A DNA stretch of 35,967 nucleotides from Nocardiopsaceae bacterium (lineage in GTDB: Bacteria; Actinomycetota; Actinomycetes; Streptosporangiales; Streptosporangiaceae): positions 1 through 35,967 of the forward strand of contig JAFMRC010000013.1 in the NCBI GenBank assembly GCA_017354375.1. Direction: 5' to 3'. Under the pieces are notes generated by a model. It saw only the letters and a program-made list of their open reading frames with translations. It was not told the origin of the DNA and ran no database searches. Below, one piece after another: positions 1,874-33,198 of the stretch. Both the position numbers and the translations under genes were made by a program. The number at the start of each line of letters is the position of its first letter. Position 1 is the first letter of the stretch.

Positions 1874-1932
1874 CGGGCCCGGGCACCCAGCCCCAACTCT
1901 GGACACCCAGCCCTGACACCCGATCTACTGCG

Positions 1933-2100
1933 TTAGTAGCCGTTCGGCTCCTTCTTGCTGTGCGAGTGGCTGTTGTTGTTCGAGCCCGAATGGCTCGGTC
2001 CGCACCCGGTCGCGGCCAGCGCCGCGGCGGCCAGCGCGACGACGGCGAGAGCCTTCCGGGACCAGGCCGCCGCCGACCGGGAGTGGATGGTGGAACGCAT
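1933..2100 (-). CDS. Short secreted lipoprotein, 55 residues
   Basis: A small gene of unknown function. Reading down from ATG 2100-2098 to TAA 1935-1933 gives a signal peptide with a basic n-region (R2, H6, R8, R15, K16), a hydrophobic stretch ALAVVALAAAALAA (about residues 17-30) and a lipobox AATG-C with the lipidated cysteine at residue 32. The mature part is only about 24 residues and polar: Ser/Asn/His-rich (SGSNNNSHSHS), then KKEPNGY. A strong Shine-Dalgarno AAAGGAG lies seven bases before the ATG, which decides the start. It converges with yajQ and lies downstream of the MFS-arylsulfotransferase gene on the same strand, 102 bases away. The rest of 1874-2202 shows no other gene. The His/Ser-rich tail could bind metal, but that is a guess. 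Confidence 0.65.
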   Translation of the reverse strand: MRSTIHSRSAAAWSRKALAVVALAAAALAATGCGPSHSGSNNNSHSHSKKEPNGY

Positions 2101-2202
2101 TGTCGTGCTCCTTTCTGGGGATCAGCTCTGCTGGGGTCACAGCCAGGCTAGGGTGCCGCAGGCAGGCTCACCCGCGGCGCCCTAGCCGGTCGCGTGACGA
2201 GG

Positions 2203-5178
2203 CTACGTGGCCGGGAAGACCTTCGAGGTCCCGATCACGTGCCCCTTCGCGTCCAGCGCCTGCAGCCGGAAGTCCTGGTAGCTCTTCCCCACCGGAATGG
2301 CCGTCTCGAAGCCTGACTTAGCCGTGGTCTTCACCGCGGCGAGATGGCTCGCGTCCGGCCCGGCCAGGACCCGCCAGGAGGCGACCTGGGTGGCGCCGTT
2401 CCAGCTCGCGTACACAGTAGCCGAACTCCCGTGCCGCCGGGCCGCCCCGCTGGGCGGGGTCAGCGGCAGCCCGGTCCAGTGACTGATCTGGATCGCCCGG
2501 TAGCTCTGATTCGACCCCGGGAGGATGCCGTCCATGAGCAGCTTGCCCGACTTGCTGTACTCCGAGAAGTACGGCGTGGAGCCCCAGCCGACGAACTCGT
2601 TGCCGTTCGGCAGGTGCTCGTCGCTGCCCATGTAGGCGGCTTCGACACCGTCGTGCTTGACCTGGCTTTCCAGGGAAGCGGTGCCGCTGGCCCGGTTGAG
2701 GTGCAGGGTCAATCCCCGGGAGGTCCCGTTCGGGGGAAGGAACGTGTCCGAGCCGACGATCTGGCAGCATGCGTCGTCGAACATGCTGATCCGGTTACCG
2801 GGCAGCATCGACACGTCATGCTGCCACTCGAACGACGCTCCCTTCCCGAACTTGAACGTGGAGTGCTTGCCGCCGAGGGTCCACTGGATCGCGCCGGTCT
2901 TGGTGTTGATCAGGTAGGCGGCCCAGGTGTTGCGCATCGACACGAGGAGGGTGTTCGGGCCGACCACGTCGATGGAGTTGACGTGGTAGACGTCCCACGG
3001 GAAGCCGTTGGACGGCGGGTTCGCGTAGGAGTCGGTGACCGGGATGTGCTTGAGCGCGTCCCATGTATGCAGCAGCTTGCCGCTGCGTAGGTCGTACTCC
3101 TGCACCGCCGAGTCGGTGATCGCGCCGTCTACCGAGCCGCCGTAGCGGGCCAGGTTCATCGGCATGTCCTTGTTCGCGGTCACCCACGCGTCGTGACCCT
3201 TGATCACCAGCGTGTGCATCGTCGGGATCCAGCCGTCGGCGCCCTTCAGGGTCGCGATCGTCTGGTAGTGCTGGTTGACGATGACGAACTCACCGCTGTT
3301 GGTCGCGCCGGTCCTGGTGACGACCCCCTGCCACCAGGACAGGGCGGGCTTCCCCTCATAGGTCTGCTCGGCCAGGTCCGAGGCGACGACGTTCTTCGGG
3401 ACCGGCCGGAACCAGACCGGCTGCATGTCGTTGCCGATCATCAGCGGGCCGCTCTGCCCGACGATCGGCGGCTTGCCCAGGTCATAGAAGTTCGACAGCA
3501 GGATGTCGCCGGGCGCCAGTTCCGACTTGCTGCCCTTCATGTCCGCGTGGATCTTGGGCGGGTGCAGCCCGGGCGCCGAGACGAAGCTGTAGGCGCCCTT
3601 GGTGGTGAAGGCGCCGATCGGGGCGCCGGAGCCACCGGCGAAGCCGAAGTCGATGCCGACGAAGGCCGCGATCACTACCAGCACCGCGGCCGGCAGCCGG
3701 AGCCGGACCCAGGCCGACTTGCCCGGCCCGGCCCCCGGTGGCAGCAGCGTGAACGTGCCCACGGCGGCCAGCAGGGCGAGGCCCGCGGCGATGAGGAACG
3801 AGACCCGGAACCCCTGGGTCAGCGCCACGGGAGTCGGCACGTTCCGCCCGATCTGGCGGCTGCTGTACCAGGTGGCGACCGAGGCGAGCACCGCGAGGCC
3901 AAGCGCGCCGCCTACCTGCCGGGAGGTGTTCACCAGGCCGGAGGCGAGGCCTGCCTGCTGGTGCCCGGCAAGCTGGGTGGCGGCGATCGTGGACGGCACG
4001 ACCGAAAGGCCGATGCCGGCCGTGACGAGCAGGCCGGGCAGGATCACGAACCCGACCGCGCTTCCGCTGGGGCCGATCCTGGCCAGCAGCAGCAGCCCCG
4101 CGCCCAGCATGACCAGGCCTCCGCCGAGTACCGGCCGGACCCCGAACTTGCCGACGAGCCGGCCGGCCTGCGAGGCCGAGAGCATGAGCACCAGCGCCAT
4201 CGGGAAGAACGCCAGCCCGGCGTTCAGCGGAGTGAGGCCCAGCACCTGCTGCATGTACAGCGAGCTGATGTACCACATCCCGAACAGCGAGGCGCTGAAC
4301 ACCAGCACGACCAGGTTGGCGGAGCGGAACGCGCCGGTGACCTCCTTCAGCGGCACCAGCGGATCCTTCGCTCGCGCCTCCACCACCGGGAACAAGCCGG
4401 TCAGGACGATGCCGCCGATGATCGGGCCGAAGGCCAGCGCGGTGGTCAGGCCATAGGTGCTGGCGTTCACGATCCCGTACGCGGTCAGCATCAGCCCGGC
4501 GGTCAGCACCAGCGCGCCGAGGAGGTCGAACCGCGCGCCGACCTTGGTCGGGCGGTCGGCGATCACCAGGATGGCGATGACGGCGGCGACGATCCCGATC
4601 GGCGGGTTGATCAGCAGCACCCAGCGCCAGCCGATCTCATAGGTGATGATCCCGCCGAACAGCGCGCCGGCCGCGCCGCCGACGCCGTTCATCGCGCCCC
4701 ACAACCCGATCGCCCGGTGACGGGCGGGTCCTGGCGGGAACGACGAGGTGATGGCCGCGAGCGATCCGGCCGCCATCAGGGCCCCGCTCAGGCCCTGGAC
4801 CGCGCGCGCGATCACCAGCATTCCCTGGCTTGCCGACATGCCGCCAGCCAGGGAGGCGATCGCGAACAGGACGAGGCCCGCCGCCAGCGTGCGCCGCTGG
4901 CCGAGCTGGTCGGCCGCGCGCCCGCCCAGCATCAGGAAGCCGGCGAACACGATCGCGTAGGCGATGACCACCCACTGCAGGTTGGCCGACGAGAACCCGA
5001 GGCTGCCCTGGATCGAGGGCAGGGCCACGTTGACGATGGTCAGGTCGAGGATGACCATGAACTGCGCGACGCAGCACACGGCCAGCAGCCACCTCTGGCG
5101 TGCGTCACGGGTTCCCTCGGCTGGGCCCTGCTCACGGTCTTCGGTCCGGCGCCTGATCGCGCCGCCAAGAAAATTCAT
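2203..5178 (-). CDS. MFS (DHA2) exporter fused to arylsulfotransferase
   Basis: A 991-residue two-part protein. Residues ~28-480 form a 14-helix DHA2-type MFS drug/H+ antiporter: LDLTIVNVALP (44-54, motif D) and GGRAADQLGQRR (85-96, motif A). The antiporter motif C region reads GGAAGALFGG, with the usual proline replaced by alanine. A 15th hydrophobic helix follows (~495-514). Residues ~520-930 match the actinobacterial arylsulfotransferase (ASST) beta-propeller family: GAFTTKGAYSFVSAPGLHPP, PVWFRPVP, YHVNSI, SMRNTWAAYL, LGGKHS, WQHDV and FDDACC. A short beta-rich tail (~940-991) resembles an Fn3 module. With 14 helices both MFS ends lie inside, so helix 15 would place the ASST domain outside the membrane. 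ASST enzymes move sulfate between phenolic compounds without PAPS; substrates here are unknown. A sulfotransferase gene lies upstream. SD is weak (GGAAG, 12 bases). Confidence 0.88.
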   Translation of the reverse strand: MNFLGGAIRRRTEDREQGPAEGTRDARQRWLLAVCCVAQFMVILDLTIVNVALPSIQGSLGFSSANLQWVVIAYAIVFAGFLMLGGRAADQLGQRRTLAAGLVLFAIASLAGGMSASQGMLVIARAVQGLSGALMAAGSLAAITSSFPPGPARHRAIGLWGAMNGVGGAAGALFGGIITYEIGWRWVLLINPPIGIVAAVIAILVIADRPTKVGARFDLLGALVLTAGLMLTAYGIVNASTYGLTTALAFGPIIGGIVLTGLFPVVEARAKDPLVPLKEVTGAFRSANLVVLVFSASLFGMWYISSLYMQQVLGLTPLNAGLAFFPMALVLMLSASQAGRLVGKFGVRPVLGGGLVMLGAGLLLLARIGPSGSAVGFVILPGLLVTAGIGLSVVPSTIAATQLAGHQQAGLASGLVNTSRQVGGALGLAVLASVATWYSSRQIGRNVPTPVALTQGFRVSFLIAAGLALLAAVGTFTLLPPGAGPGKSAWVRLRLPAAVLVVIAAFVGIDFGFAGGSGAPIGAFTTKGAYSFVSAPGLHPPKIHADMKGSKSELAPGDILLSNFYDLGKPPIVGQSGPLMIGNDMQPVWFRPVPKNVVASDLAEQTYEGKPALSWWQGVVTRTGATNSGEFVIVNQHYQTIATLKGADGWIPTMHTLVIKGHDAWVTANKDMPMNLARYGGSVDGAITDSAVQEYDLRSGKLLHTWDALKHIPVTDSYANPPSNGFPWDVYHVNSIDVVGPNTLLVSMRNTWAAYLINTKTGAIQWTLGGKHSTFKFGKGASFEWQHDVSMLPGNRISMFDDACCQIVGSDTFLPPNGTSRGLTLHLNRASGTASLESQVKHDGVEAAYMGSDEHLPNGNEFVGWGSTPYFSEYSKSGKLLMDGILPGSNQSYRAIQISHWTGLPLTPPSGAARRHGSSATVYASWNGATQVASWRVLAGPDASHLAAVKTTAKSGFETAIPVGKSYQDFRLQALDAKGHVIGTSKVFPAT

Positions 5179-5241
5179 CGTAAATGGCTACTTCCGGCGT
5201 GGCTCAGCTAGTGGCTCAGCTAGAGGTTTGGCTCAGCTAAC

Positions 5242-5276
5242 AGTCACTGGCTCAGCCAGAGGCTCAGCCAGTGACT
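5242..5276. repeat. 11-bp perfect inverted repeat between two genes
   Basis: AGTCACTGGCT (5242-5252) and AGCCAGTGACT (5266-5276) are perfect 11-base inverted arms around a 13-base centre. The region 5199-5290 also carries five to six degenerate copies of GGCTCAGC(T/C)AG. It fills the 111-base gap between the sulfotransferase stop and the start of the MFS-arylsulfotransferase gene. No T-run follows on the transcribed (minus) strand, so it is not a classic intrinsic terminator. It could be an RNA hairpin or an operator. Confidence 0.6.
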
Positions 5277-5289
5277 CGAATCCAGGGAC

Positions 5290-5997
5290 TCAGCTAGCAG
5301 CGGGCGTTTCCCGGCGCTGCTCCTGCCAGCTGACCAGGGTCGCGATGGCGGCGTCGTTCAGCAGGTCGGCGAACATCGCCGAGTCGTTCACGTGCGGCAC
5401 CGGCTCCGATGGCACCGGGGTCTGCAGGAACTCGCACAGCGGCCCCCAGCCGTCGGCCGGCGACCACACTAGCAGCCGCTCCGGCGGGACGGTCCGGCGG
5501 ACCTCGTCGTTGTAGTGCTCCATACCCGCGATCAGCGAGCTCTCGTCGTGGTAGCTGGACGGGCCGAGCAGGCCGCTCTTCTCCCACATCGCGGTCAGCA
5601 GGTTGCAGTAGAGAGCCCAGTCCGGGTCGAGCCGGCCCCGGGCCGAGGACAGGTCGTGCATCAGGTTGTCGCCGTAGAGCGTGGCCCAGATCGTGTCGCG
5701 CATGCTGCGCGCCCAGGACTCGCCGCTACGCACGCTGAGCAGGACCTTGGCGTCCGGGTAGACGTCCATCAGCTCCCGGTAGAAGTAGGCCCCTGGCCAG
5801 TCGACTATCGACTGGTGGCCGTCGAGGAGCCGGTCCCAGTCGGCGTTTCCCTCGAAGGCATCGGACCACAGCCGTATCGTGCTGAGGTCGGCGAAGATGT
5901 TGGCCATGTGGTAACAGGGCCCGACTCCGAGCATCTCCAGCGCTATCTTCTGCGTGAGCGTGGCCGTGCGGGGCAGGCCTGCTCCGATGAGCCTCAT
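5290..5997 (-). CDS. Sulfotransferase family protein (PAPS-type)
   Basis: A 235-residue cytosolic protein of the bacterial sulfotransferase family related to PF17784. The N-terminus IGAGLPRTATLTQKIALEML is the 5'-phosphosulfate-binding loop (usual form G-x-x-R-T-G-T-x-S-L; here R-T-A-T-L-T). It is followed by GPCYHM, DWPGAYFYREL and YPDAKVLLSVRSGESWARSM, the last matching the 3'-phosphate-binding 'LxxRxPxxWxxS' segment. Family members transfer sulfuryl groups from PAPS to hydroxyls; the acceptor here is unknown. The start is supported by a good Shine-Dalgarno (GGGAAGGGGAG) four bases before the ATG. It lies upstream of the MFS-arylsulfotransferase gene on the same strand, so the two could form a sulfation/export unit, although a repeat-rich 111-base gap separates them. 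Confidence 0.85.
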   Translation of the reverse strand: MRLIGAGLPRTATLTQKIALEMLGVGPCYHMANIFADLSTIRLWSDAFEGNADWDRLLDGHQSIVDWPGAYFYRELMDVYPDAKVLLSVRSGESWARSMRDTIWATLYGDNLMHDLSSARGRLDPDWALYCNLLTAMWEKSGLLGPSSYHDESSLIAGMEHYNDEVRRTVPPERLLVWSPADGWGPLCEFLQTPVPSEPVPHVNDSAMFADLLNDAAIATLVSWQEQRRETPAAS

Positions 5998-6023
5998 CCG
6001 GCTCCCCTTCCCGTTGCTTCTTG

Positions 6024-6139
6024 ATACTTCGCTAGCATGGGCTAAAGTATGCTCTGCCCGGAGCCTTGTCCCGCCGGGATTCCGCAGGATTGATGCAGAT
6101 TGTTACAGTGGCCTCTTAACATTTGTTACGGCAGTGGCC
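6024..6139. promoter_or_regulatory. Candidate regulatory region of the sulfotransferase gene
   Basis: Two signals lie upstream of the sulfotransferase start (5997, minus). An inverted repeat ATACTT (6024-6029)/AAGTAT (6045-6050) has an inner pair TAGC/GCTA. Farther upstream is a direct repeat, TTGTTAC-AG-TGGCC (6100-6113) and TTGTTAC-GGCAG-TGGCC (6123-6139). The first could be a repressor operator and the second a pair of activator sites. No regulator gene lies nearby. The call rests only on symmetry and position. Confidence 0.3.
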
Positions 6140-6228
6140 CCTTTACGTACCCTGTCGCGCACTGACAGTAACAGGTCGCCCCGACGGAGCCCGATAGAAA
6201 ACGGAAACAAGCCTCCCTCGGCCCTCCC

Positions 6229-7005
6229 TCAGCGCCGGGCCTGGCCGGCCAGGGATTCCAGCCGCCGGACGCGCTCGCCCGTCGGCGGGTGGGTGGGGAA
6301 CAGCCGCCCGAAGCCCTCGATCGAGAACGGATGGGCGATCATCAGGTGGCCGGCCGCGCCCACCAGGCCGCGGGCTGGCAGCGGCAGGTCCGTGGCCGAC
6401 TCCGAGATCTTCCGCAGCGCGCTCGCCAGGGCCATCGGGTCGCCGGCCAGCAGCGCGCCGTCGAAGTCCGCCCTGAATTCACGCCCTGAGGGCGTGATCA
6501 CCGCCACCAGCAGCGCCACCGCCGGCACCGGCAAGAACGAGACCAGCGCCGCCAGCCCCGCCGACCACGACGACACCAGCGTGTCCCGCCGGGACACGTG
6601 CGCCAGCTCGTGCGCCAGCACGGCCCGCAGCTCGGCCAGCGAGAGCGAGCGCAGCAACCCCTCGGTGCAGCAGACCGCGGCGGTGCGCGAACTGCAGCAC
6701 ACGGTCAGGATGTTCGGCTGCTGGGCAGGAGCCACGAACAGCCGCGGCACCGGCAGCCGGGCATCCCGGCATAGCTCCCGGACCAGCCCGAACAGCGCCG
6801 GATTCTCCACCTCGCTCACGGGACGGGCGCGCAGGGCAGTCAGCACCATCCGTTCGGACTGAAAATAGATAAGCCATCCGAATGCGAAGAGCAGGGCGCT
6901 GGCCAGGGCAAGTCCGGCGAGCCCGAGCCACGCGAAGCCAGCGAGCAAGACCAGGCCGCACAGCACCCCGGCCAGCGCCAATGCCCGAATACCGTAGCCG
7001 CGCAC
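6229..7005 (-). CDS. htpX: HtpX-like M48 membrane metalloprotease
   Basis: A 258-residue M48-family zinc protease, slightly shorter than typical HtpX (~280-290). Two N-terminal membrane helices (about 8-48) are followed by the zinc site HELAH (132-136), a further hydrophobic segment (about 147-171) and the third zinc ligand in REFRAD (E176). The family tail FPTHPPTGERVRRLESLA closes the protein. HtpX enzymes cleave misfolded membrane proteins at the cytoplasmic face. The GTG start at 7005 has GGGAGGGG seven bases upstream. One oddity: the strand region before the active site reads TVCCSSRTAAVCC, with two Cys-Cys pairs where family members usually have a single or no cysteine. It appears monocistronic, and no stress operator is recognisable. 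Confidence 0.9.
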   Translation of the reverse strand: MRGYGIRALALAGVLCGLVLLAGFAWLGLAGLALASALLFAFGWLIYFQSERMVLTALRARPVSEVENPALFGLVRELCRDARLPVPRLFVAPAQQPNILTVCCSSRTAAVCCTEGLLRSLSLAELRAVLAHELAHVSRRDTLVSSWSAGLAALVSFLPVPAVALLVAVITPSGREFRADFDGALLAGDPMALASALRKISESATDLPLPARGLVGAAGHLMIAHPFSIEGFGRLFPTHPPTGERVRRLESLAGQARR

Positions 7006-7444
7006 GGCCGAACCCCTCCCTCACGCATCGGCCGCGGCCGCCGGGAGCCGGAGAGAACGTCAGGCTCCAGCGGAATGCGAACCGCAGCTAGCCGGTTAAC
7101 GACCATGTAGGGACGCGCGTTCCGCGGCTAGCGTGACGCTCGTTGGGGCTAGGGTTAAGGATCGCTGAGGATATCGGCGCATCAGAACCTGTCCCGCGCC
7201 TGTCCTGCTCATGCGGCCGGGCGGTTGTTACGGCCAGATAACGTGGCGGGCACCACACGCGGGACTAAGGCAACTGAATACCCTCTCGACATAGAATCAA
7301 AACGTGTCCTGCCACCTGAGGAAACCGAGGAACCCGAGGAACCCGAGGGACCGAAGGAACCCAAGGACCCGACCAACGACCCGCCCGTAGGGAAGGGGTG
7401 CTGTGCGGGGGCACCCAGCCGCGTGCGGAGGAGGCTTCAACGCT
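7006..7444. other. Intergenic region, divergent htpX/korA, with 9-bp tandem repeat
   Basis: 439 bases between divergent htpX and korA. It holds six imperfect copies of a 9-base purine-rich unit (consensus aacccgagg) at 7313-7366, a short inverted repeat GTTA-(8)-TAAC around 7226-7241, and a possible -10 TAGAAT at 7292-7297 for korA. An open frame from TTG 7225 covers the repeats (reading as Glu-Pro units), but it has no Shine-Dalgarno and runs into korA out of frame, so I do not call it a gene. Confidence 0.5.
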
Positions 7445-9310
7445 GTGACCAAGCAGGTCCAGGAGCTAGATCACGTCATTATTCGCTTCGCGGGGGACTC
7501 CGGTGACGGGATGCAGCTCACCGGGGACAGGTTCACCCAGGAGACCGCGATCTTCGGGAACGACCTGTCGACCCTCCCGAATTTCCCGGCCGAGATCCGC
7601 GCGCCCGCCGGCACGCTCCCGGGTGTCAGCAGCTTCCAGCTCCACTTCGCGGACCACGACATCCTCACCCCGGGCGACGCACCGGACGTGCTGGTCGCGA
7701 TGAACCCCGCGGCGCTGGCGGCCAACCTCAAGGACCTGCCGCGCGGCGCCGACCTGATCGTCAACACCGACGAGTTCACCAAGCGCAACCTGTCGAAGGC
7801 CGGCTACGACGCGAACCCGCTCGACGACGACTCGATCGCGCAGGCCTACAGCCTGCACCCGGTGCCGCTGACCTCGCTGACCGTCAAGGCCCTCGAGGAC
7901 ATCGACATCACCCGGAAGGACGCCGAGCGCGCCAAGAACATGTTCGCCCTCGGACTGCTGTCCTGGCTGTACGGCCGGCCCGCCGAGGGAACGCTGGCGT
8001 TCCTCGAAGCCAAGTTCGGCAAGAAGCCAGAGGTCTACAAGGCGAACGTGACCGCCTTCCAGGCCGGCTGGAGCTACGGCGAGACTACCGAGGATTTCTC
8101 GGTCCGGTACGAGGTGAAGGCGGCCTCCCTCGCCCGGGGGAAATATCGCAATATAACGGGAAATACGGCACTTTCGTACGGCCTTATCGCCGCGTCGAAG
8201 CTGTCGAAGCTGCCGTTGTTCCTCGGCTCCTACCCGATCACCCCGGCCTCCGACGTGCTGCACGAACTCGCCAAGCACAAGCGGTTCGGCGTGCGGACGT
8301 TCCAGGCCGAGGACGAGATCGCGGCGGTCGGGTCGGCGCTGGGGGCCGCGTTCGGCGGATCCCTCGCCGTTACCACCACGAGTGGCCCCGGCATGGTGCT
8401 CAAGGCGGAGACGGTGGGCCTGGCCGTGTCGGTCGAATTGCCGCTGATCGTCTGCGACATCCAGCGGGCCGGGCCGTCCACCGGCATGCCGACGAAGACG
8501 GAGCAGGCCGACCTGCTGATGGCGCTCTTCGGCCGCAACGGGGAGTCCCCGGTACCGGTGGTCGCCGCGGCGTCGCCGTCGGACTGCTTCCACGCGGCCA
8601 TCGAGGCGGCGCGGATCGCGGTCACCTACCGGACGCCGGTCGTGCTGCTGTCCGACGGGTACCTGGCAAACGGCTCCGAACCATGGCGCATTCCGGAAAT
8701 TTCCTCTTTGCCGGATCTGTCGGCCGAGTTCGCCTTCACGACATCCCCCAACCCGGCGGACAACGGCGGCGGCTTCCAGCCGTTCCGCCGCGATCCGGCC
8801 ACGCTCGCCCGGCCGTGGGCGATCCCCGGCACCCCGGGCCTGGAGCACCGGATCGGCGGCATCGAGAAGGCCGACGGCGCCGGGTCGATCTCCTATGACC
8901 CGGTCAACCACGACCTGATGGTCCGGACCCGCCAGGCGAAGATCGACGGCATCGCCGCGTCCATCCCCGACCTGGAGGTGGACGACCCGGACGGCGACGC
9001 CCGCGTGCTGGTGCTCGGCTGGGGCTCCACCTACGGCTCGATCGGCGCCGCGGCCCGCCGGGTCCGCCGCGCCGGGCACCCGGTCGCCCAGGCGCACCTG
9101 CGGCACCTGAACCCGTTCCCGGCCAACCTGGGCGACGTGCTCCGCCGCTACGACAAGATCCTGGTTCCCGAGATCAACCTCGGCCAGCTCGCGCTGCTGC
9201 TGCGCGGCAAGTTCCTGGTCGACGTGATCTCCTACAACCGGGTGCGCGGGCTTCCGTTCCGCGCCGCGGAGCTCGCCGAGGCAATCGAGGAAGTCATAAC
9301 CCATGCCTAA
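7445..9310 (+). CDS. korA: 2-oxoacid:ferredoxin oxidoreductase, alpha subunit (gamma-alpha fusion)
   Basis: A 621-residue subunit of 2-oxoglutarate (or other 2-oxoacid):ferredoxin oxidoreductase, which oxidatively decarboxylates the oxoacid to acyl-CoA with ferredoxin as acceptor. The N-terminal ~190 residues are the gamma domain (FAGDSGDGMQLTGDRFT near the start). The rest is the alpha/pyrimidine domain with the YPITP motif, TTSGPG and QRAGPSTGMPTKTEQADLL. I chose the GTG at 7445 (VTKQVQELD), matching the family's usual N-terminus, with AGGAGG ten bases upstream; an ATG at 7403 would add 14 non-conserved residues. The stop overlaps korB by eight bases. In actinomycetes this enzyme can work beside or in place of 2-oxoglutarate dehydrogenase. 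Substrate preference is inferred from the family. Confidence 0.93.
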   Translation: MTKQVQELDHVIIRFAGDSGDGMQLTGDRFTQETAIFGNDLSTLPNFPAEIRAPAGTLPGVSSFQLHFADHDILTPGDAPDVLVAMNPAALAANLKDLPRGADLIVNTDEFTKRNLSKAGYDANPLDDDSIAQAYSLHPVPLTSLTVKALEDIDITRKDAERAKNMFALGLLSWLYGRPAEGTLAFLEAKFGKKPEVYKANVTAFQAGWSYGETTEDFSVRYEVKAASLARGKYRNITGNTALSYGLIAASKLSKLPLFLGSYPITPASDVLHELAKHKRFGVRTFQAEDEIAAVGSALGAAFGGSLAVTTTSGPGMVLKAETVGLAVSVELPLIVCDIQRAGPSTGMPTKTEQADLLMALFGRNGESPVPVVAAASPSDCFHAAIEAARIAVTYRTPVVLLSDGYLANGSEPWRIPEISSLPDLSAEFAFTTSPNPADNGGGFQPFRRDPATLARPWAIPGTPGLEHRIGGIEKADGAGSISYDPVNHDLMVRTRQAKIDGIAASIPDLEVDDPDGDARVLVLGWGSTYGSIGAAARRVRRAGHPVAQAHLRHLNPFPANLGDVLRRYDKILVPEINLGQLALLLRGKFLVDVISYNRVRGLPFRAAELAEAIEEVITHA

Positions 9311-10388
9311 CACCGATATACCGAACGGATCGTCGCGACTGCGCTCGCTCACCCTGGTCCCCCACGAGTCAGGGCTGGCGACCAGGGACTTCAAGTCCGA
9401 CCAGGAGGTTCGCTGGTGCCCCGGTTGCGGGGACTACGCGATCCTGGCGGCCTTCCAGTCGTTCCTGCCCTCCCTGGAGGTACCGCGGGAGAACATCGTG
9501 GTGGTCTCCGGCATCGGCTGCTCATCGCGGCTGCCGTACTACGTGAACTCCTACGGGATGCACTCCATCCACGGGCGTGCCCCCGCGATCGCGTCCGGCC
9601 TGGCCGCGTCCAGGCGGGACCTGTCGGTGTGGGTGATCACCGGCGACGGGGACGCGCTGTCGATCGGCGGCAACCACCTGATCCACGCGCTGCGCCGCAA
9701 CGTGAACATCAAGATCCTGCTGTTCAACAACCGGATCTACGGGCTGACCAAGGGCCAGTACTCCCCCACCTCCGAGCGGGGCAAGGTCACGAAGTCGACG
9801 CCGTTCGGCTCGCTGGACGAGCCGTTCAACCCGGTGTCGCTGGCGCTGGGCGCCGGGGCGTCGTTCGTGGCGCGGTCGGTGGACTCCGACCGCAAGCACC
9901 TGCAGTCGGTGCTGCGGGCGGCGGCGGACCACGAGGGCGCGGCCTTCATCGAGGTCTTCCAGAACTGCCCGATCTTCAACGACGACGCGTTCGCGGGGGT
10001 GAAGCAGCCGAGCGCGCCGGGGCTGATCCGGTTGTCGCACGGCTCGCCGATCCGCTTCGGGCCGGAGGAGTCCATGGGCCTGACGCTCGGCGCCTACGGA
10101 GCGCTGGAAGCGGTGCCGGCCTCGTCGGTGCCGTCGTCGTCGCTGGTCACGCACGACGAGACGCTGGAGGATCCGTCGTACGCGTTCGCGCTGTCCCGGC
10201 TGGACAACGGCGATTTCTCGCACACCCCGATCGGCGTGTTCCGGTCGGTCGAGCGGCCATCGTACGACTCGCTGATGGCATCCCAGATCTCGGAGGCGCA
10301 AGCCGCGTCGAGCCACACCGATGGCGATGGCGACGTGGATGCCCTGGCCGCCCTCATCGCCGGCAACGACACCTGGGAAGTCGCCTAA
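9303..10388 (+). CDS. korB: 2-oxoacid:ferredoxin oxidoreductase, beta subunit
   Basis: A 361-residue thiamine-diphosphate and [4Fe-4S]-binding subunit paired with korA. WCPGCGDY gives the first two cluster cysteines, GIGCSS the third and FQNCPIFND the fourth. GDGDALSIGGNHLIHALRRN and the following Asn-rich segment (LLFNNRIYGLTKGQYSPTS) form the ThDP/Mg site. The ATG at 9303 lies inside the end of korA, so the two are translationally coupled. The last ~100 residues are more variable. The gene ends at 10388 tail to tail with the phosphotransferase gene, whose open frame continues antisense through most of korB. No ferredoxin gene is adjacent. Confidence 0.95.
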   Translation: MPNTDIPNGSSRLRSLTLVPHESGLATRDFKSDQEVRWCPGCGDYAILAAFQSFLPSLEVPRENIVVVSGIGCSSRLPYYVNSYGMHSIHGRAPAIASGLAASRRDLSVWVITGDGDALSIGGNHLIHALRRNVNIKILLFNNRIYGLTKGQYSPTSERGKVTKSTPFGSLDEPFNPVSLALGAGASFVARSVDSDRKHLQSVLRAAADHEGAAFIEVFQNCPIFNDDAFAGVKQPSAPGLIRLSHGSPIRFGPEESMGLTLGAYGALEAVPASSVPSSSLVTHDETLEDPSYAFALSRLDNGDFSHTPIGVFRSVERPSYDSLMASQISEAQAASSHTDGDGDVDALAALIAGNDTWEVA

Positions 10389-16898: not shown

Positions 16899-17894
16899 CT
16901 AGCTGGCGCGGGTGGTGACGAAGTCGCAGAGGGCCTCGAAGGCCGCGCGGGCGGGCACGTCGGGGAGCTGGCCCACCAGGTCGCGGGCACCAGAGATCCA
17001 TTCCCGAACGGATGATCGCGCCTCTTCCAGCGCCGGCGACTGCCTCAGCAGGGCCAGGGCCTCCGCGTGGGACTCCGGATCGGTGAGGTCGGCCTGGGTC
17101 AGCAGGCTCCGCAGCCTGGCCTCGCCCGGGGCGTCGGAATGCAGCGCGTACAGGACCGGCAGCGACCGGACGCCCTGCTTCAGGTCAGTGCCCGGCGACT
17201 TCCCGGACTCGGCCGAGGAGGAGGAGACGTCCAGCACGTCGTCCGACAGCTGCCAGGCGATCCCGATGCGCATGCAGGCACCGGCGATCAGGTCGGTCAC
17301 GTCGGCGGGGGCGCCGGAGAACATCGCCCCGAACCGGCCGGCGGTCGCGATCAGCGACCCGGTCTTCCCGTCGATCACCCGCATGTAGTGGGCGAGGGAG
17401 TCCTCCCCCGGCTGGGGGCCGACGGTCTCCGCGAGCTGGCCGTCGCACAGGCGGCAGAACGTCTCGGCCTGGATCCTGATGGCCTCGGCCCCGAGGTCGG
17501 CGAGGATGCGGGAGGCGCGGGCGAACAGGTAGTCGCCGGCGAGGATCGCCACCGAGTTGCCGAACTGGGAATTGGCCGACGGGTGACCTCGCCGCATGAC
17601 GGCCTCGTCCATCACGTCGTCGTGGAACAGCGAGGCGAGGTGGGTGAGCTCGATGGCGACCGCGGCGGGCACGATCCGCTTGTCGCGGTAGTCACCGAAC
17701 CTGGCGGCCAGCAGCACCAGCATGGCGCGGAACCGCTTGCCTCCGGCCTCCATCATGTGCCGGGAGACCTCGCTGAACATCTCGTACCCGCCGGAGGGCA
17801 CGTCCCGCAGCGCGGCCTCCACGACGGTCAGGTCTTCCGCCACTTCCGCGGCGAGCGTCTCGTCGGGGAAATCGACGGGGACAGCGAAGCTCAC
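16899..17894 (-). CDS. Polyprenyl diphosphate synthase (menaquinone side chain)
   Basis: A 331-residue trans-isoprenyl diphosphate synthase. The first Asp-rich motif is in LFHDDVMDEAVMRRG (DDVMD at 92-96) and the second in QLSDDVLD (about residue 220), followed by GTDLKQGVRSLPVLYAL. GGKRFRAMLVLLAA carries the conserved GKR. It adds isopentenyl diphosphate units to make the long (hepta- to nona-prenyl) chain attached to menaquinone; chain length cannot be read reliably. GTG 17894 has GGAG five bases upstream. It is the last gene of the menG-menJ-nuo run, 50 bases after nuoN, which supports a respiratory-quinone role over carotenoid or other terpenoid roles. It corresponds in type to GrcC/HepT-like synthases. 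Confidence 0.92.
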   Translation of the reverse strand: MSFAVPVDFPDETLAAEVAEDLTVVEAALRDVPSGGYEMFSEVSRHMMEAGGKRFRAMLVLLAARFGDYRDKRIVPAAVAIELTHLASLFHDDVMDEAVMRRGHPSANSQFGNSVAILAGDYLFARASRILADLGAEAIRIQAETFCRLCDGQLAETVGPQPGEDSLAHYMRVIDGKTGSLIATAGRFGAMFSGAPADVTDLIAGACMRIGIAWQLSDDVLDVSSSSAESGKSPGTDLKQGVRSLPVLYALHSDAPGEARLRSLLTQADLTDPESHAEALALLRQSPALEEARSSVREWISGARDLVGQLPDVPARAAFEALCDFVTTRAS

Positions 17895-17944
17895 TCCGAC
17901 TCCATGTCATAGGCACAGCAGTGACCCACCAGCCTACCGGGTGG

Positions 17945-19534
17945 CTATCGCACGAAGAGCTGCGTGGCGGCGTGGTTCGCGAGGCTCAGCACAGGCTGGG
18001 GGACGATGCCGAGGACCACCGTGGCGAGCGTGCCGAGGGCCACCGCGGTGCCGGTGAACACGCTGGGCACCGCTACCTCGGGGCCGTCCTCCACCGGGTC
18101 GCTGAAGAACATCAGCACGATGATCCGGACGTAGAAGAACGCAGCGACGGCCGACGACACGACGCCGACGATCACCAGCGGCAGCGCGCCCCCGGCGATA
18201 GCCGCCTGGAACACGGCGAACTTCCCGGTGAACCCGCTGGTCAGCGGGATGCCCGCGAAGGTCAGCAGGAACAGCGCGAAGATCCCGGCCAGCACTGGCG
18301 AGCGCTTGCCGAGCCCGGCCCAGCGGGACAGGTGGTTGGCCTCGCCGGACGGGTCGCGCACCAGGGTGACCACGGCGAACGCGCCGACCGTGGTCAGGCC
18401 GTAGGAGGCCAGGTAGAACAGCGAGCTGGACAGCCCGCTCACGGACGCGGCCACGACCGCGGTCATGATGAACCCGGCGTGCGCGATCGAGGAGTAGGCC
18501 AGCAGCCGCTTGACGTCCCTCTGGGTGATGGCGATGACCGCGCCGACGACCATGGTCCCGATCGCGACCACCCACAGCACCGGCCGCCAGTCCCAGGTGA
18601 GGGTGCCGAACGCCACGTAGAACACGCGCAGCACCGCGCCGAACGCGGACACCACCGTGCAGGACGCCATCAGCGCGGTGACCGGGGTGGGCGCGCCCTG
18701 GTAGACATCCGGCTTCCAGTTGTGGAACGGCACCGCGCCGACCTTGAACAGCAGGCCGAGGCCGGTGAGGGCGAGGCCCGCGTACAGCAGCGTGTCGCGG
18801 CCGGAGTTCGTGCCGACCGCGGAGGCGATCGCGCCGAGCGACACCGATCCGGAGTAGCCGTACAGCATCGCCACGCCGAACAGGAAGAACGCCGACGAGA
18901 ACGACCCGAGCAGGAAGTACTTGACCGCCGCCTCGTGCGACAGCAGGCGACGGCGCCGGGCCAGGCCGCACAGCAGGTACAGCGGCAGCGACAGCACCTC
19001 GAGCGCGACGAACATCGTCAGCAGGTCGTCGGACGCCGGGAACAGCAGCATGCCGCCGACCGAGAACAGCGCCAGCGGGTAGATCTCGGTGTGCACGAGC
19101 CCGGCTAGCAGGCCCGTGCGCTCCTCCGCGGAGCCGGGCGTGGCCGCGGCCTGGCCGGCGAACGCCGACACGTCGGAGGACTGGTCGGCGATCAGCAGCA
19201 CGCTCGCGATCGCCATCACCAGGATCGTGCCCTGGATGAACAGCGTGGGCCGGTCCACCGCGACCGCGCCCATCGCCGCGACGTGGCCGGCCGACCCCTT
19301 GGCGAACAGCGAGGAGGTCGCGGCGATCACGCAGGTCCACACGAACGCGGTGACCAGGCTGGCGAACGTCAGCACCAGGTGCACCGGGCGGCGCATGCCC
19401 CTGGGCACGAACGCCTCGACGAGCACGCCGACCACCGCCGCCCCGAACACGACCAGCATCGGCGCGATCTGGCTGTACTCGATGCTCGGCGCCGGGATCG
19501 TCCCCGGCGCCGCCGCCGAAACCGCAAGGCTCAC
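17945..19534 (-). CDS. nuoN: NADH-quinone oxidoreductase subunit N
   Basis: A 529-residue antiporter-like membrane subunit of complex I, about 14 helices, one of three proton-pumping modules. Visible marks: MFVALEVLSLPLYLL (the TM5 glutamate), FHNWKPDVYQGAPTPVTALM (TM7-8 region with the channel lysine) and DVKRLLAYSSIAHAGFI. GTG 19534 overlaps the nuoM stop by four bases (GTGA). The N-terminus is Ala/Pro-rich and ahead of the first helix. It is the last nuo gene; the polyprenyl synthase follows. Confidence 0.97.
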   Translation of the reverse strand: MSLAVSAAAPGTIPAPSIEYSQIAPMLVVFGAAVVGVLVEAFVPRGMRRPVHLVLTFASLVTAFVWTCVIAATSSLFAKGSAGHVAAMGAVAVDRPTLFIQGTILVMAIASVLLIADQSSDVSAFAGQAAATPGSAEERTGLLAGLVHTEIYPLALFSVGGMLLFPASDDLLTMFVALEVLSLPLYLLCGLARRRRLLSHEAAVKYFLLGSFSSAFFLFGVAMLYGYSGSVSLGAIASAVGTNSGRDTLLYAGLALTGLGLLFKVGAVPFHNWKPDVYQGAPTPVTALMASCTVVSAFGAVLRVFYVAFGTLTWDWRPVLWVVAIGTMVVGAVIAITQRDVKRLLAYSSIAHAGFIMTAVVAASVSGLSSSLFYLASYGLTTVGAFAVVTLVRDPSGEANHLSRWAGLGKRSPVLAGIFALFLLTFAGIPLTSGFTGKFAVFQAAIAGGALPLVIVGVVSSAVAAFFYVRIIVLMFFSDPVEDGPEVAVPSVFTGTAVALGTLATVVLGIVPQPVLSLANHAATQLFVR

Positions 19535-21159
19535 GGCTGGTTTCCCTTCAGATGCGATGAATTGGCCCCCGGTGCATGGGCCGCGTTAGCGGCGGGAGCC
19601 GGGTGCGCCGGCACCGGGTTGGTAACGTGCACCTGCGACATCGTCGCCTTGACCGCCGGGTTGATGACGTCGAGCACCGGCTTGGGGTAGACGCCCATCG
19701 CGACGATCAGCGCGATCAGCGGCATCACCGCCCACAGCTCCCGGGCTCGCAGGTCCCTGAACGAGGCCACGGACTCCGACACCGGTCCGTGCGTGGTGCG
19801 CTGCACCATCCACAGGATGTAGATGGCCGCGAGGATGATGCCGACGACGGCGAACGAGCCGGCCACCTTGTACCGGGAGAACGTGCCCGCGAGCACCAGG
19901 AACTCCGACACGAAGGTCGACAGGCCCGGCATCGCCAGCCCGGCGAGGCCGGAGACGAGGAACAGGCCGGCGAGCATCGGGGCGACCTTCTGCACCCCGC
20001 CGTAGTCCTCGATGCGGTCCGAGCCACGCCGGACGATCAGGAACCCGGCCAGGATGAACAGCGCGCCGGTGGCGAACCCGTGGTTCACCATGTACAGCGT
20101 CGCGCCGGCCTGGCCCTGCGAGGTCAGCGCGAAGATGCCCAGGACGATGAAGCCGAAGTGCGAGACCGACGTGTAGCCGATCAGCCGCTTCATCGACTTC
20201 TGCCCGATGGCGACGACCGCGCCGTACAGGATGCTGATGACGGCCAGGGTGAGGATGAGCACCTTGAAGTACGACACGGCCGCCGGGAACAGTTCCAGGC
20301 AGTACCTGATCATCCCGAACGTGCCGACCTTGTCCATCACGCCGAGCATCAGCACCGCCGCGCCGGGCTGCGCGGAGGCCGCGGCGTCCGGCAGCCAGGT
20401 GTGGAACGGCCACAGCGGCGCCTTGATCGCGAACGCGAGGAAGAACCCGAGGAACAGCCACTTCTGCGCGGTCGGGCTCAGCGCGACGTGCACCAGCGAG
20501 GAGAGCAGGAACGTGCCGTGGTGCCCGGTGGCCGGCGAGTCGCCCGCGTACACGTACAGCGCGATGACCGCGACGAGCATCAGCAGGCCGCCGAACAGGC
20601 TGTAGAGCAGGAACTTGACGGCCGCGTACTGCCGCGGCCCCTCGCCGAAGGACCCGATCATGAAGTACATCGGGACCAGCATGGCCTCGAAGAACACGTA
20701 GAAGAGGAAGACGTCGGTGGCCTCGAAGACCCCGATCATCATCGTCTCCAGCAGCAGCATGAGGGCGAAGTAGGACTTCACCGACCTGCGGGTCGCGCCC
20801 CGGTCCGCGTCGTGCCAGGAGGCCAGGAGCACCACCGGCATCAGCACCGCGGTCATGCCGACCAGCACCAGGGCGATCCCGTCGACGCCGAGCGCGTAGT
20901 GCACGCCGAACTGCGGGATCCACGAGTACTGCTCGGTGAGCTGGTAGGTGGGGCCGCTCGTGCTGAACCGGGTCGCCATCACGATGACCCAGGCCAGCGT
21001 CGCCACCGAGAACGCGAGCGCGAGCACCTTGGCCAGCTTGTCGCGCGCCTCGACGTCCCCGGGCGCGCTGTTGGCCGGCACCGGAGGGATCAGCGTCAGC
21101 ACGATCGAGCCGAGCAGCGGCAGCGCGCCGGCGACGGTCAGCCAGGGAATGCCGTTCAT
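19531..21159 (-). CDS. nuoM: NADH-quinone oxidoreductase subunit M
   Basis: A 542-residue antiporter-like proton-pumping subunit of complex I, about 14 helices. FFEAMLVPMYFMIGSFG carries the TM5 glutamate; PFHTWLPDAAASAQPGAAVL and KSMKRLIGYTSVSHFGFIVL are the channel and broken-helix segments. The C-terminal ~30 residues (PVPAHPAPAANAAHAPGANS) are a polar Ala/Pro/His-rich tail, probably not conserved. ATG 21159 follows the nuoL stop with no gap, and it ends in a GTGA overlap with nuoN. Confidence 0.97.
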   Translation of the reverse strand: MNGIPWLTVAGALPLLGSIVLTLIPPVPANSAPGDVEARDKLAKVLALAFSVATLAWVIVMATRFSTSGPTYQLTEQYSWIPQFGVHYALGVDGIALVLVGMTAVLMPVVLLASWHDADRGATRRSVKSYFALMLLLETMMIGVFEATDVFLFYVFFEAMLVPMYFMIGSFGEGPRQYAAVKFLLYSLFGGLLMLVAVIALYVYAGDSPATGHHGTFLLSSLVHVALSPTAQKWLFLGFFLAFAIKAPLWPFHTWLPDAAASAQPGAAVLMLGVMDKVGTFGMIRYCLELFPAAVSYFKVLILTLAVISILYGAVVAIGQKSMKRLIGYTSVSHFGFIVLGIFALTSQGQAGATLYMVNHGFATGALFILAGFLIVRRGSDRIEDYGGVQKVAPMLAGLFLVSGLAGLAMPGLSTFVSEFLVLAGTFSRYKVAGSFAVVGIILAAIYILWMVQRTTHGPVSESVASFRDLRARELWAVMPLIALIVAMGVYPKPVLDVINPAVKATMSQVHVTNPVPAHPAPAANAAHAPGANSSHLKGNQP

Positions 21160-23112
21160 CTAGAGCCTCACCACCAGAAGGCCGGCCACCAGCAGCACGG
21201 CACCGAGGAGCATGGACAGCGCGTAGGAGCGCGCGTAGCCGGTCTGGATCCGCCGGAGCCGACCGGACGAACCCCCGACGAAGGCCGCCAGGCCGTTGAC
21301 CAGCCCGTCGATGCCCCGGCTGTCGAAGTACACCGACAGCCGGGTGAGCCACTGCCCGGGTCGCATCAGCACGGACTCGTTGAAGGCGTCGCCGTACAGG
21401 TCCTTGCGGGCGGCGGCGGTGAGGAACGAGCCGCGGGGCGCGATCGACGGCACCGGAACCCGCCCGTACATGAACCAGGCGATCCCGAGCCCGGCGACCA
21501 CCAGGACCAGGGCGATGATCCCCGGCTCGCTCCACACCCCATGCGGCGTGGCTGGCGCCCCGGTCACGGGCTTCAGGAAGTTCATGAACCGCTGCCCGAG
21601 CATCAGGAACGCGCCCGCCCCGACCGAGCCGATCGCGAGCAGGACCATCGGCCAGGTCATGACCGCCGGCGACTCGTGCGGATGGTAGGCCTTGCCCTCC
21701 GGGGCGCCCTCCGGCGCCTCCTCGCCCTCCCAGCGCCTGCGGCCGAACCAGGTCATGAACATCATCCGCGACATGTAGAACGCGGTGATGCCCGCGCCGA
21801 CGATCGCGCACGCGGCCAGGATGTAGCCGGTCGTGCCGCCCTTGTCCCAGGCGGCCTCGATGATGCCGTCCTTGGTCCAGAACCCGGAGAAGGGCGGGAT
21901 GCCGATGATCGCCAGGTAGCCGAGGCCGAACGTCACGAACGTCACCGGAAGGAAGCGGGCCAGCCCGCCGTACCGGCGCATGTTCACGTCGTCGTTCATG
22001 CCGTGCATGACCGACCCGGCGCCAAGGAACAGCCCGGCCTTGAAGAACCCGTGCACGAGCAGGTGCGCGATCGCGAACACGTACCCCGCGGGGCCGAGGC
22101 CAGCGCCGAGGGTCATGTAGCCGATCTGCGACATCGTGGACCCGGCGAGGGACTTCTTGATGTCGTCCTTGGCGCACCCGATGATCGCGCCGACCAGCAG
22201 GGTGACCGCGCCGACGATCGCCACGGCGAGCTGGGCGTCCGGCGACACGTTGAAGATCGGGTTGGACCGCACGATCAGGTAGACGCCCGCGGTGACCATG
22301 GTCGCGGCATGGATCAGCGCGGACACCGGGGTCGGGCCCTCCATCGCGTCGAGCAGCCAGGCCTGCAGCGGCACCTGGGCGGACTTACCGCAGGCGCCGA
22401 GCAGGAGGAGGAGCCCGATCGCGGTCGTGATCCCGGTCCCGCCGGACGTCGACCCGGAGAGCATCTGGTGGAAGACCGGGCCGAAGTTGAACGTCCCGAA
22501 CTCGGCGAACATCAGCATGATCGCCAGCGACAGGCCGGCGTCCCCGACGCGGTTGGCGATGAACGCCTTCTTCGCCGCGACGGCCGCCGAGGGCCGGTGC
22601 TGCCAGAACCCGATCAGCAGGTAGGACGCGAGGCCCACGCCCTCCCACCCGGCGTACAGGCCGAGGTAGTTGTCGCTCAGGACCAGCAGCAGCATCGCCG
22701 CGATGAACAGGTTCAGGTAGGCGAAGAACCGGCGCCGCTCGGTGTCGTGGGCCATGTAGCCGATCGAGTAGATGTGGATCAGCGAGCCGACCCCGGTGAT
22801 CAGCAGCACGAAGCTGATGGACAGCGGGTCGAGCAGGATCCCGATGTTCGCCTGGAATCCGTCGACCGGGATCCAGGAGAACATGTGCAGGTCCCGGCTC
22901 CGGTCCGCGGCCGGGTAGCCGAGCAGCGTGAAGAACGCGATCACGCCGTACGCGAACGACGCGAGGGACATCGCGCACCCGAGCAGGTGACCCCATTTGT
23001 CGGTGCGCCTGCCGCCGAGCAGCAGCACAGCCGTGCCGAACACGGGGAACGCGAGCAGCAGCCACGAGGCGTGAAGCACGCCGGTAGCGGCAAGCGTCGT
23101 CATCTCAGTCAA
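21160..23112 (-). CDS. nuoL: NADH-quinone oxidoreductase subunit L
   Basis: A 650-residue distal proton-pumping subunit of complex I with about 16 helices and the long C-terminal lateral helix. Marks: [40 protein letters not shown] (conserved Glu), [44 protein letters not shown] and [15 protein letters not shown]. The lateral helix/TM16 region is the ~120-residue tail ending [16 protein letters not shown]. It lies 5 bases after nuoK and abuts nuoM. Confidence 0.97.
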
Positions 23113-23117
23113 TCCCC

Positions 23118-23417
23118 TCAGTACTTGAGCAGGTTCGCGTCATCGACCGACGCGGACTTCCTGGCGCGGTAGATGGCCATCAGGATGGCCAGGCCGACCA
23201 CGACCTCGGCGGCGGCCACGACCATCACGAAGAAGGCCACTACCTGCCCGTCGAGGTTGCCGTTCATCCGCGCGAACGCGACGAACGCGAGGTTGCAGGC
23301 GTTGAGCATCAGCTCGATGCACATGAAGATCACGATCGCGTTGCGCCTGATCAGCACGCCGACCCCGCCGATGGCGAACAGCACGACGGCCAGGAACACG
23401 TAGTGCGCCGGGCTCAT
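23118..23417 (-). CDS. nuoK: NADH-quinone oxidoreductase subunit K
   Basis: A 99-residue three-helix membrane subunit of complex I. Both functional glutamates are present: [14 protein letters not shown] (TM2) and [11 protein letters not shown] (TM3). The length matches the family (~100). The ATG overlaps the nuoJ stop as ATGA (23417-23414). The C-terminus [15 protein letters not shown] has the usual D-x-x-x-L-K end. Confidence 0.97.
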
Positions 23418-24244
23418 TCGGACTCACCCCCGCCGGCACCCGCCTCGATCTGGACCCGCTTGGACGCCTCAAGATCTTCCGCGATCCGCTGGTGCGGGTC
23501 GCGACCGAGGTCGAGGTCGCGCTGGCTGACCGCCATAGGTACCGAACGGGTGGAGGCGCTTCCGTCGGGCAGCAACGCTGGCATATCGACGGCGTCATGC
23601 AAGGCGTAGACGCCCGCCGGCGGCTCCGGCGCGACCTGGCCGCTGGCGATCTTCTGGCGGGAAATATCCCGCTGAGACGGCTTCGGCGACGTCCGCTCGC
23701 GGTGCGCCAGCACCATCGCGCCGAGCGCGGCCGTGATCAGCAGGGCGCTGGTGATCTCAAACGGGTACACGTAGGTGGTGAAGATCAGCTTGGCCAGCCC
23801 CGTGAGGTTGCCGGACTGCTGGTGCGACAGCGTGGCGGGGGCGCTGCCGATGGCGGCGTGCCCGGTGCCGACGACGAGCAGGACCATGAACGCGACGCCG
23901 CCGATCGCGGCCCACGCTCGCTGGCCCGAGATCGTCTCCCGCAGCGAGTCCGCCGAGCTCACGCCGATCAGCATCATGACGAAGAGGAACAGCATGAGCA
24001 CGGCGCCGGTGTAGACGATGACCTGGACGAACGCCAGGAACGGCGCCGCCTGCATCGCGTACATCACGGCCAGGCAAAGCATCACCACGGCGAGCAGCAG
24101 CGCGCAGTGCACGGCCTGCCGGACGCAGATCATGGCGAGCGCCGCGCCGACCGCGAGGACGGCGAGCACCCAGAACGCGGCCTCGCCGAAGTCCGCGTCC
24201 AGGTTCGTGCCACCCCCGCCCGCGGCGAGCAGGTGAGTGATCAT
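23414..24244 (-). CDS. nuoJ: NADH-quinone oxidoreductase subunit J
   Basis: A 276-residue membrane subunit of complex I; five helices lie within the first ~185 residues, including [21 protein letters not shown], the pi-bulge TM3 with the conserved Y-x-G-A-V. The remaining ~90 residues (from [13 protein letters not shown]) form a hydrophilic tail with charged and proline-rich sequence, far longer than in E. coli NuoJ (184 residues) though long tails occur in actinobacteria. It overlaps nuoI and nuoK by four bases each. Confidence 0.96.
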
Positions 24245-28533: not shown

Positions 28534-28542
28534 GTAAGGCAC

Positions 28543-33194: not shown

Positions 33195-33198
33195 TTCG

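What the first reader, a model, noticed from the sequence alone, without database searches (positions are those of the whole stretch)
2203..5178. MFS exporter fused to an extracytoplasmic arylsulfotransferase through a 15th helix
A 14-helix DHA2 transporter leaves its C-terminus inside; the extra helix at ~495-514 flips the chain so the sulfotransferase domain is outside. The helix and domain look just like the N-terminal anchor of stand-alone actinobacterial arylsulfotransferases, as if two neighbouring genes had fused. Export and sulfate transfer would then be done by one protein.
Basis: partly seen in the sequence, partly recalled or inferred. Interest (0 to 1): 0.6.

Follow-up and report, generated by a model that had tools for sequence, protein, structure and literature searches.

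The report
Exporter fused to extracellular sulfate transferase
A soil bacterium makes one protein that is both a membrane exporter and, on the outside of the cell, a sulfate-transferring enzyme; relatives carry it beside the genes that make sulfated phenolic carriers, which suggests a relay for moving activated sulfate out of the cell.

Summary
Window 2203-5178 (-) encodes one 991-residue protein: a 14-helix MFS exporter, a 15th helix (495-513) and an outward-facing arylsulfotransferase (ASST). It is no assembly error: 34 of 36 loci from other assemblies carry it in one frame, and each half forms one clade. The closest structure to the ASST half is Cpz4 of caprazamycin biosynthesis (37% identity, 445 residues); the catalytic residues are invariant in 35 of 35.

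The gene follows a PAPS-type sulfotransferase (5290-5997), and the pair is an acquired island: six relatives have an empty site. In relatives the fusion keeps company with APS kinase, sulfotransferase, type III polyketide synthase (PKS) and more ASSTs. In 28 of 28 PKS-positive genomes the PKS lies beside a sulfotransferase; in seven the two are one protein. This is caprazamycin two-step sulfation logic with export welded to the last transferase. Best reading: the MFS half exports a sulfated phenolic carrier and the ASST passes its sulfate to an outside acceptor. Transport substrate and acceptor are inferred; the window's own genome lacks that PKS.

The parts
2203..5178 (-). MFS-ASST fusion gene, 991 aa
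3742..5088 (-). 14-helix MFS (DHA2-like) exporter half, residues 31-479
   Evidence: Pfam MFS_1; 14 hydropathy peaks; Foldseek EfpA TMt 0.78
3640..3696 (-). 15th helix, residues 495-513 (489-513 in the model)
2206..3600 (-). Extracytoplasmic ASST propeller, residues 527-991, Cpz4-like
2818..2820 (-). His787, aligned with the sulfated His436 of E. coli ASST (with H655, H732, N734, R749 the active-site set)
   Evidence: alignment; invariant in 35 of 35
5290..5997 (-). PAPS-type sulfotransferase (Sulfotransfer_4), upstream in the same direction, 111 nt from the fusion start
   Evidence: Pfam PF17784, 3.1e-59
1874..6228 (.). Inserted island (fusion + sulfotransferase) between the yajQ-like gene (1379-1873) and the M48 peptidase gene (6229-7005)
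   Evidence: the two flanking genes lie 12-251 nt apart in 6 relatives

Best explanation
The protein is the membrane step of a two-step sulfation relay. Shown (by sequence and prediction): one chain with an exporter half, a 15th helix that places the C-terminal domain outside, and a Cpz4-type PAPS-independent ASST with an intact active site, encoded next to a PAPS-type sulfotransferase and, in relatives, next to APS kinase, type III PKS and more ASSTs. Inferred: inside, PAPS is spent to sulfate a small phenol or pyrone; the MFS half exports this sulfated carrier, probably against protons as in the DHA2 family; outside, His787 takes the sulfate as a sulfohistidine and hands it to an acceptor of the cell envelope or a secreted product (Cpz4 itself favours a sugar hydroxyl). 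PAPS stays in the cell, so a carrier is needed, and joining exporter and transferase delivers it at the point of use.
For: Architecture and topology. Cpz4 (9kf6/9kf4) is the top structural match, Z 47.0, rmsd 1.9, 445 aligned, 37% identity. H252, H356, R374, H436 of E. coli ASST align with H655, H732, R749, H787; each of these and N734 (opposite N358) is invariant in 35 of 35; their roles are in PMC13426309 (passages). Sulfotransfer_4 gene in 12 of 36 fusion loci plus the window, in 8 of them directly upstream and co-directional; in 32 of 36 fusion genomes, 0 of 14 control genomes. L147: fusion, ASST, sulfotransferase, APS kinase in a row on one strand. PKS in 18 of 31 fusion-positive against 10 of 201 other genomes of one order (Fisher p 5e-12). 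PKS within about 350 nt of a sulfotransferase in 28 of 28 PKS genomes and one polypeptide with it in 7. Known precedent: Cpz6 PKS, Cpz8 sulfotransferase, Cpz4 ASST (passages in PMC4257720, PMC6731281, PMC4924298).
Against: No transport or enzyme assay. The window's own genome has only a distant type III PKS (26% to the L038 one) with no sulfotransferase found in the 18 kb read around it, and 19 of 36 fusion genomes lack the PKS at the cut-off, so the carrier is unknown there. The PKS-sulfotransferase pair also occurs without a detected fusion (10 of 28 PKS genomes; in one of them, G485, the fusion is cut by a contig end, and another, G625, has the unfused pair of L144), so it is not dedicated to it. 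The association p-value ignores shared ancestry. MFS exporters are promiscuous; the substrate cannot be read from sequence.
Confidence: 0.55

Rival explanations
1. The MFS half exports the acceptor (a secreted metabolite or glycolipid precursor), and the ASST sulfates it on emergence with a donor that reaches the outside by another route.
For: DHA2 exporters are common in metabolite clusters (general knowledge); extra ASSTs sit in 27 of 36 loci, so donor supply need not depend on the fusion.
Against: The neighbour clusters with a sulfur theme that recur are those of sulfate activation and donor making; no acceptor-making gene was seen to recur, though only about 5 kb per side was read and not every neighbour was searched.
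Confidence: 0.2
2. Helix 15 is an internal signal sequence that signal peptidase cuts, so one gene makes a free exporter and a free secreted ASST.
For: Sister stand-alone ASSTs carry AQA or ARA before the shared motif; 31 of 35 fusions keep small residues at -3 and -1.
Against: 0 of 35 fusions keep the AxA form; small residues are common in such linkers; the single-frame fusion is kept throughout the clade.
Confidence: 0.12
3. A detoxification device: phenols are sulfated inside, pumped out, and the ASST scrambles sulfate among extracellular phenols without a dedicated acceptor.
For: Bacterial ASSTs act on many phenols (PMC13426309, passages); the window carries only exporter-ASST and sulfotransferase, a minimal conjugate-and-export pair.
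Against: PKS next to or fused with the sulfotransferase points to a made-to-order carrier in many relatives.
Confidence: 0.12
4. Assembly or frameshift artefact joining two genes.
For: The window is from a fragmented genome (580 contigs).
Against: 34 of 36 loci from other assemblies have the join in one frame; uniform third-codon GC; AlphaFold model confident on both sides.
Confidence: 0.01

Closest known systems
Caprazamycin two-step sulfation (Cpz6 type III PKS, Cpz8 PAPS sulfotransferase, Cpz4 ASST; Tang et al. 2013, seen only through citing papers)
   Same: Cpz4 is the closest solved structure of the ASST half; the relatives' clusters combine a type III PKS and a PAPS-type sulfotransferase as in cpz.
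   Different: Here the ASST is fused to an MFS exporter, in a number of relatives the sulfotransferase is fused to the PKS, and no antibiotic genes were seen nearby; the window itself lacks the PKS.
E. coli CFT073 arylsulfate sulfotransferase (3ELQ)
   Same: His252, His356, Asn358, Arg374 and the sulfated His436 have counterparts.
   Different: Periplasmic dimer with an N-terminal beta-sandwich (PMC13426309 passage); the window scores far better with Arylsulfotran_2 than with Arylsulfotrans and is membrane-joined.
EfpA and EmrB-type 14-helix MFS exporters
   Same: Fold (EfpA TMt 0.78, 28-29% identity) and helix count.
   Different: No structure in the rows shown carries such an enzyme domain; TIGR00711 is just under its cut-off.
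Adipostatin sulfation cassette (adp: T3PKS, ST and PAPS genes; PMC12135136 passages)
   Same: Type III PKS with a sulfotransferase and APS kinase.
   Different: Separate proteins, no ASST or exporter named in the passages seen.

Membership tests
MFS, DHA2 (14-helix) exporters | MFS_1 profile above the curated cut-off | tested here: met
   188.5 bits against 33.4
MFS, DHA2 (14-helix) exporters | 14 transmembrane helices in the transporter half | tested here: met
   hydropathy and positive-inside pattern, helices in the model
MFS, DHA2 (14-helix) exporters | TIGR00711 EmrB subfamily cut-off | tested here: not met
   214.7 bits against 230.2; so not filed in that subfamily
Arylsulfotran_2 / Cpz4-type ASST | Pfam PF14269 above the curated cut-off | tested here: met
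   134.9 bits against 27
Arylsulfotran_2 / Cpz4-type ASST | Fold of Cpz4 | tested here: met
   9kf6 Z 47.0, rmsd 1.9, 445 residues aligned of a 453-residue chain
Arylsulfotran_2 / Cpz4-type ASST | Catalytic His plus sulfuryl-binding His, His, Asn, Arg | tested here: met
   H787, H655, H732, N734, R749; 35 of 35 each. The Thr501 counterpart was not tested; the profile alignment to the E. coli enzyme is weak for two of three stretches (-3.1 and 5.0 bits)
Arylsulfotran_2 / Cpz4-type ASST | Sulfate transfer from an aryl sulfate without PAPS | not testable with these tools
   needs an assay
Cpz-type two-step sulfation system | PAPS-dependent sulfotransferase in the cluster | tested here: met
   5290-5997, Sulfotransfer_4; PAPS dependence itself not tested, and the family of Cpz8 was not checked
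Cpz-type two-step sulfation system | Type III PKS that makes the carrier | tested here: inconclusive
   absent from the window; 17 of 36 fusion genomes have it; own genome, 87% complete, has only a 26% relative elsewhere
Cpz-type two-step sulfation system | Known acceptor and its biosynthetic genes | not tested
   no acceptor identified

The most novel reading that the evidence does not exclude
Many uncultured soil actinobacteria run a transmembrane sulfate relay built from joined enzymes: an inside PKS and sulfotransferase (in some one protein) that make and charge a polyketide sulfate carrier, and a membrane protein that exports the charged carrier and discharges it onto an envelope acceptor, a built-in group-transfer export step for sulfate.
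Probability: 0.4. Interest if true: 0.8.

Novelty: new variant of a known kind. Interest (0 to 1): 0.63.

Why it matters
PAPS is a cytosolic nucleotide (general knowledge), so extracellular sulfation needs a way to get activated sulfate out. The caprazamycin work showed a small-molecule carrier; how such a carrier crosses the membrane is not addressed in the passages I read. A protein that joins an exporter to a Cpz4-like transferase makes that step directly testable, and the PKS-sulfotransferase fusions name the likely carrier-making enzyme. It also gives a lead to unseen sulfated envelope components in Solirubrobacterales and relatives, and a candidate single-protein tool for whole-cell sulfation.

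Tried and rejected
Artefact or missed stop: rejected on 34 of 36 other loci in one frame and even codon composition.

Mis-binned contig: rejected; the nearby 635-aa protein (7403-9310) is 84-89% identical to its counterpart in the seven congeners, and the flanking genes are syntenic in 6 of 7 fetched relative regions (the seventh, L081, shows no yajQ-like hit in the stretch read).

Fusion as a general trait of the host family: rejected; no full-length match shown in 59 other relatives (at most 14 candidates scored per genome and not all matches listed) and 1 of 396 phylum genomes, which is the window's own (2 candidates scored in the rows listed).

Fused ASST as a copy of one of the host's own ASSTs: rejected; the six own ASSTs in the tree lie far from the fused clade.

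The phmmer hit to EccC5 and weak hits to tetrathionate hydrolase and others are chance-level. Small lipoprotein-like ORF at 1933-2100: only weak, low-complexity matches in other loci, so not counted as part of the system. Rfam found nothing in the window. Paper searches for the MFS-ASST fusion and for the sulfotransferase-PKS fusion listed no paper on either; only open PMC papers were searched (for, 15 of 333 were listed), and domain-architecture tables could not be checked. ORFs of the loci were picked by a home-made GC-based rule, so starts are rough; counts of neighbours were redone with tblastn.

Full report
What is there. Window 2203-5178 on the minus strand is a single frame of 991 codons. 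Pfam finds MFS_1 at 36-427 and Arylsulfotran_2 at 607-883. Loops predicted inside are richer in K/R than those predicted outside in 7 of 7 alternations, and the loop before helix 15 is positive (3.7 K/R, 0.5 D/E), so the chain leaves the membrane outward. AlphaFold2 with 44 rows gives pLDDT 87.0 and pTM 0.83: helices of a transporter, a helix at 489-513 (block means 82 and 89 over 491-510), then almost only strands.

It is not an artefact. A scan of genome contigs returned 49 loci; 36 are candidates for the fusion and 13 match one half only. In 34 of the 36 the matched stretch is one frame across the join; L059 has a break inside the MFS half and an intact join, L061 stops at a contig edge. 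The 36 record titles are of uncultured material (35 marked MAG; L061 reads as a genome-mining assembly), mostly Solirubrobacterales, with Acidimicrobiales and unplaced actinobacteria. Within the order of one carrier (G476), 31 of 232 genomes have a match at E <= 1e-220; 28 of these cover the whole model, G662 and G621 start inside the MFS half, and G628 shows only the ASST part from a contig start. In a spread of 396 genomes of the phylum only the window's own has it.

Origin. The 34 fused ASST domains in the tree (window included) form one clade (SH-aLRT 86), sister to five stand-alone ASSTs (98*) that occur in genomes which also have the fusion; the two together have support 100*. Four of those five begin with a signal-like helix and then the same motif as the fusion junction; the fifth is cut at its start. 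The fused MFS domains form one clade (99*), and the MFS of L144 is its sister (100*). In L144 that MFS is 57% identical to the window's, ends after helix 14 with a Pro/Ala-rich tail, and the next gene, overlapping it, is a separate lipoprotein-like ASST, followed by a sulfotransferase and a PKS. That ASST scores best with the other, more distant ASST type, so L144 shows the two-gene arrangement rather than the exact parent pair. The trees were made from chosen rows: L041's duplicate ASST fragment was dropped from the ASST tree, and seven MFS rows (five stand-alones, four of them long-branched or remote, one duplicate, one remote) from the second MFS tree. The first MFS tree labelled L054 stand-alone only because its contig ends; with that label the fusion group needs two changes there.

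In the window's genome the gene is an arrival. The flanking yajQ-like and M48 peptidase genes (first name by eye, second Pfam) lie 12 to 251 nt apart, by tblastn ends, in six relatives (G001, G003, G005, G006, G009, G018), while the window has 4.3 kb between them holding only the fusion, a Sulfotransfer_4 gene (5290-5997) and perhaps one tiny ORF. The genome has three further Sulfotransfer_4 genes, one APS kinase and seven other ASST matches.

What the ASST half is. The best structural matches are 9kf6 and 9kf4, Cpz4 from caprazamycin biosynthesis (Z 47.0 and 45.5; 37 and 36% identity); no other row shown matches that half. A profile of 20 ASSTs aligned to E. coli ASST puts His436, His356, Arg374 and His252 opposite H787, H732, R749 and H655 (the stretches with His356/Arg374 and with His252 score only 5.0 and -3.1 bits, so these rest on the shared motif HVNSI and on position). 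H655, H732, N734, R749 and H787 are each invariant in 35 of 35 fusions. A 2026 review describes transient sulfation of His436 and lists the other residues (PMC13426309, passages).

The company it keeps. In the 36 loci, stand-alone ASST genes number 41 in 27 loci. Sulfotransfer_4 is in 12 of 36, and in 8 it is directly upstream in the same direction, as in the window; APS kinase in 4, type III PKS in 4, sulfatase in 4, an inositol-phosphatase-family gene (possibly a PAP phosphatase, by recall) in 2. Locus L147 has fusion, ASST, sulfotransferase and APS kinase in a row on one strand. Genome-wide, 32 of 36 fusion genomes have Sulfotransfer_4 (0 of 14 controls) and 17 of 36 have the PKS. In the order of G476, the PKS is in 18 of 31 fusion-positive and 10 of 201 other genomes (Fisher p 4.9e-12; shared descent is not corrected for, and G485, whose fusion is cut, counts as negative). 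In all 28 PKS genomes a Sulfotransfer_4 gene lies within about 350 nt, 8 of them being genomes without a detected fusion in which PKS and sulfotransferase almost touch. In 7 of 28 the two are one polypeptide, sulfotransferase first (L030, L096, L097, L098, L099, L143, L145; Pfam).

How it probably works. Caprazamycin sulfation runs in two steps: Cpz6, a type III PKS, makes triketide pyrones (presulficidins); Cpz8 sulfates them with PAPS; Cpz4 passes the sulfate to the antibiotic (passages of PMC4257720, PMC6731281, PMC4924298, PMC6560455; the original paper was not read). The same three functions cluster here, with the Cpz4-like enzyme outside and welded to an exporter. The simplest reading is that the exporter carries the sulfated phenol or pyrone and the ASST unloads it. 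Shown: domains, topology by prediction, active site, gene company. Inferred: exported substrate, acceptor, direction of flow. In the window's genome no matching PKS was found, so there another phenol must be the carrier, or the PKS lies in the missing 13%.

Limits. Nothing was assayed; MAGs are incomplete; neighbourhoods were read to about 5 kb; the PKS-sulfotransferase pair exists without the fusion; cleavage after helix 15 is not excluded (31 of 35 fusions have residues signal peptidase could accept, none has AxA).

Noticed in passing
window 5199-5297: Short tandem and spaced repeats of TGGCTCAGC(T/C)AG in the gap between sulfotransferase and fusion, with a 16-nt inverted pair at 5242-5276; 4 matches in the window against 0.12 expected. 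Perhaps regulatory or a small repeat element.
   Followed up: partly
window 1933-2100 (-): Possible 55-aa lipoprotein-like ORF (signal helix, a cysteine, then a Ser/His/Asn-rich tail) inside the island, downstream of the fusion.
   Followed up: partly
L030:8895-10580, L096, L097, L098, L099, L143, L145: Sulfotransfer_4 domain fused to a type III polyketide synthase in one polypeptide in 7 genomes; no paper on it listed.
   Followed up: partly
L144:468-4256: Unfused sister of the fused MFS, with an overlapping separate ASST gene, next to sulfotransferase and PKS.
   Followed up: partly
L148, L149 (own genome contig C413): A second ASST, a Sulfotransfer_4 gene and an MFS gene on one contig of the window's genome, within about 27 kb.
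   Followed up: no
L031, L051, L052, L069: Sulfatase-family gene facing the ASST cluster, which could remove what the ASSTs add.
   Followed up: no
window 7403-10388 and about 16899-33558: Ordinary housekeeping genes, by eye a 2-oxoacid:ferredoxin oxidoreductase pair and a nuo-type operon (names recalled, not searched).
   Followed up: no
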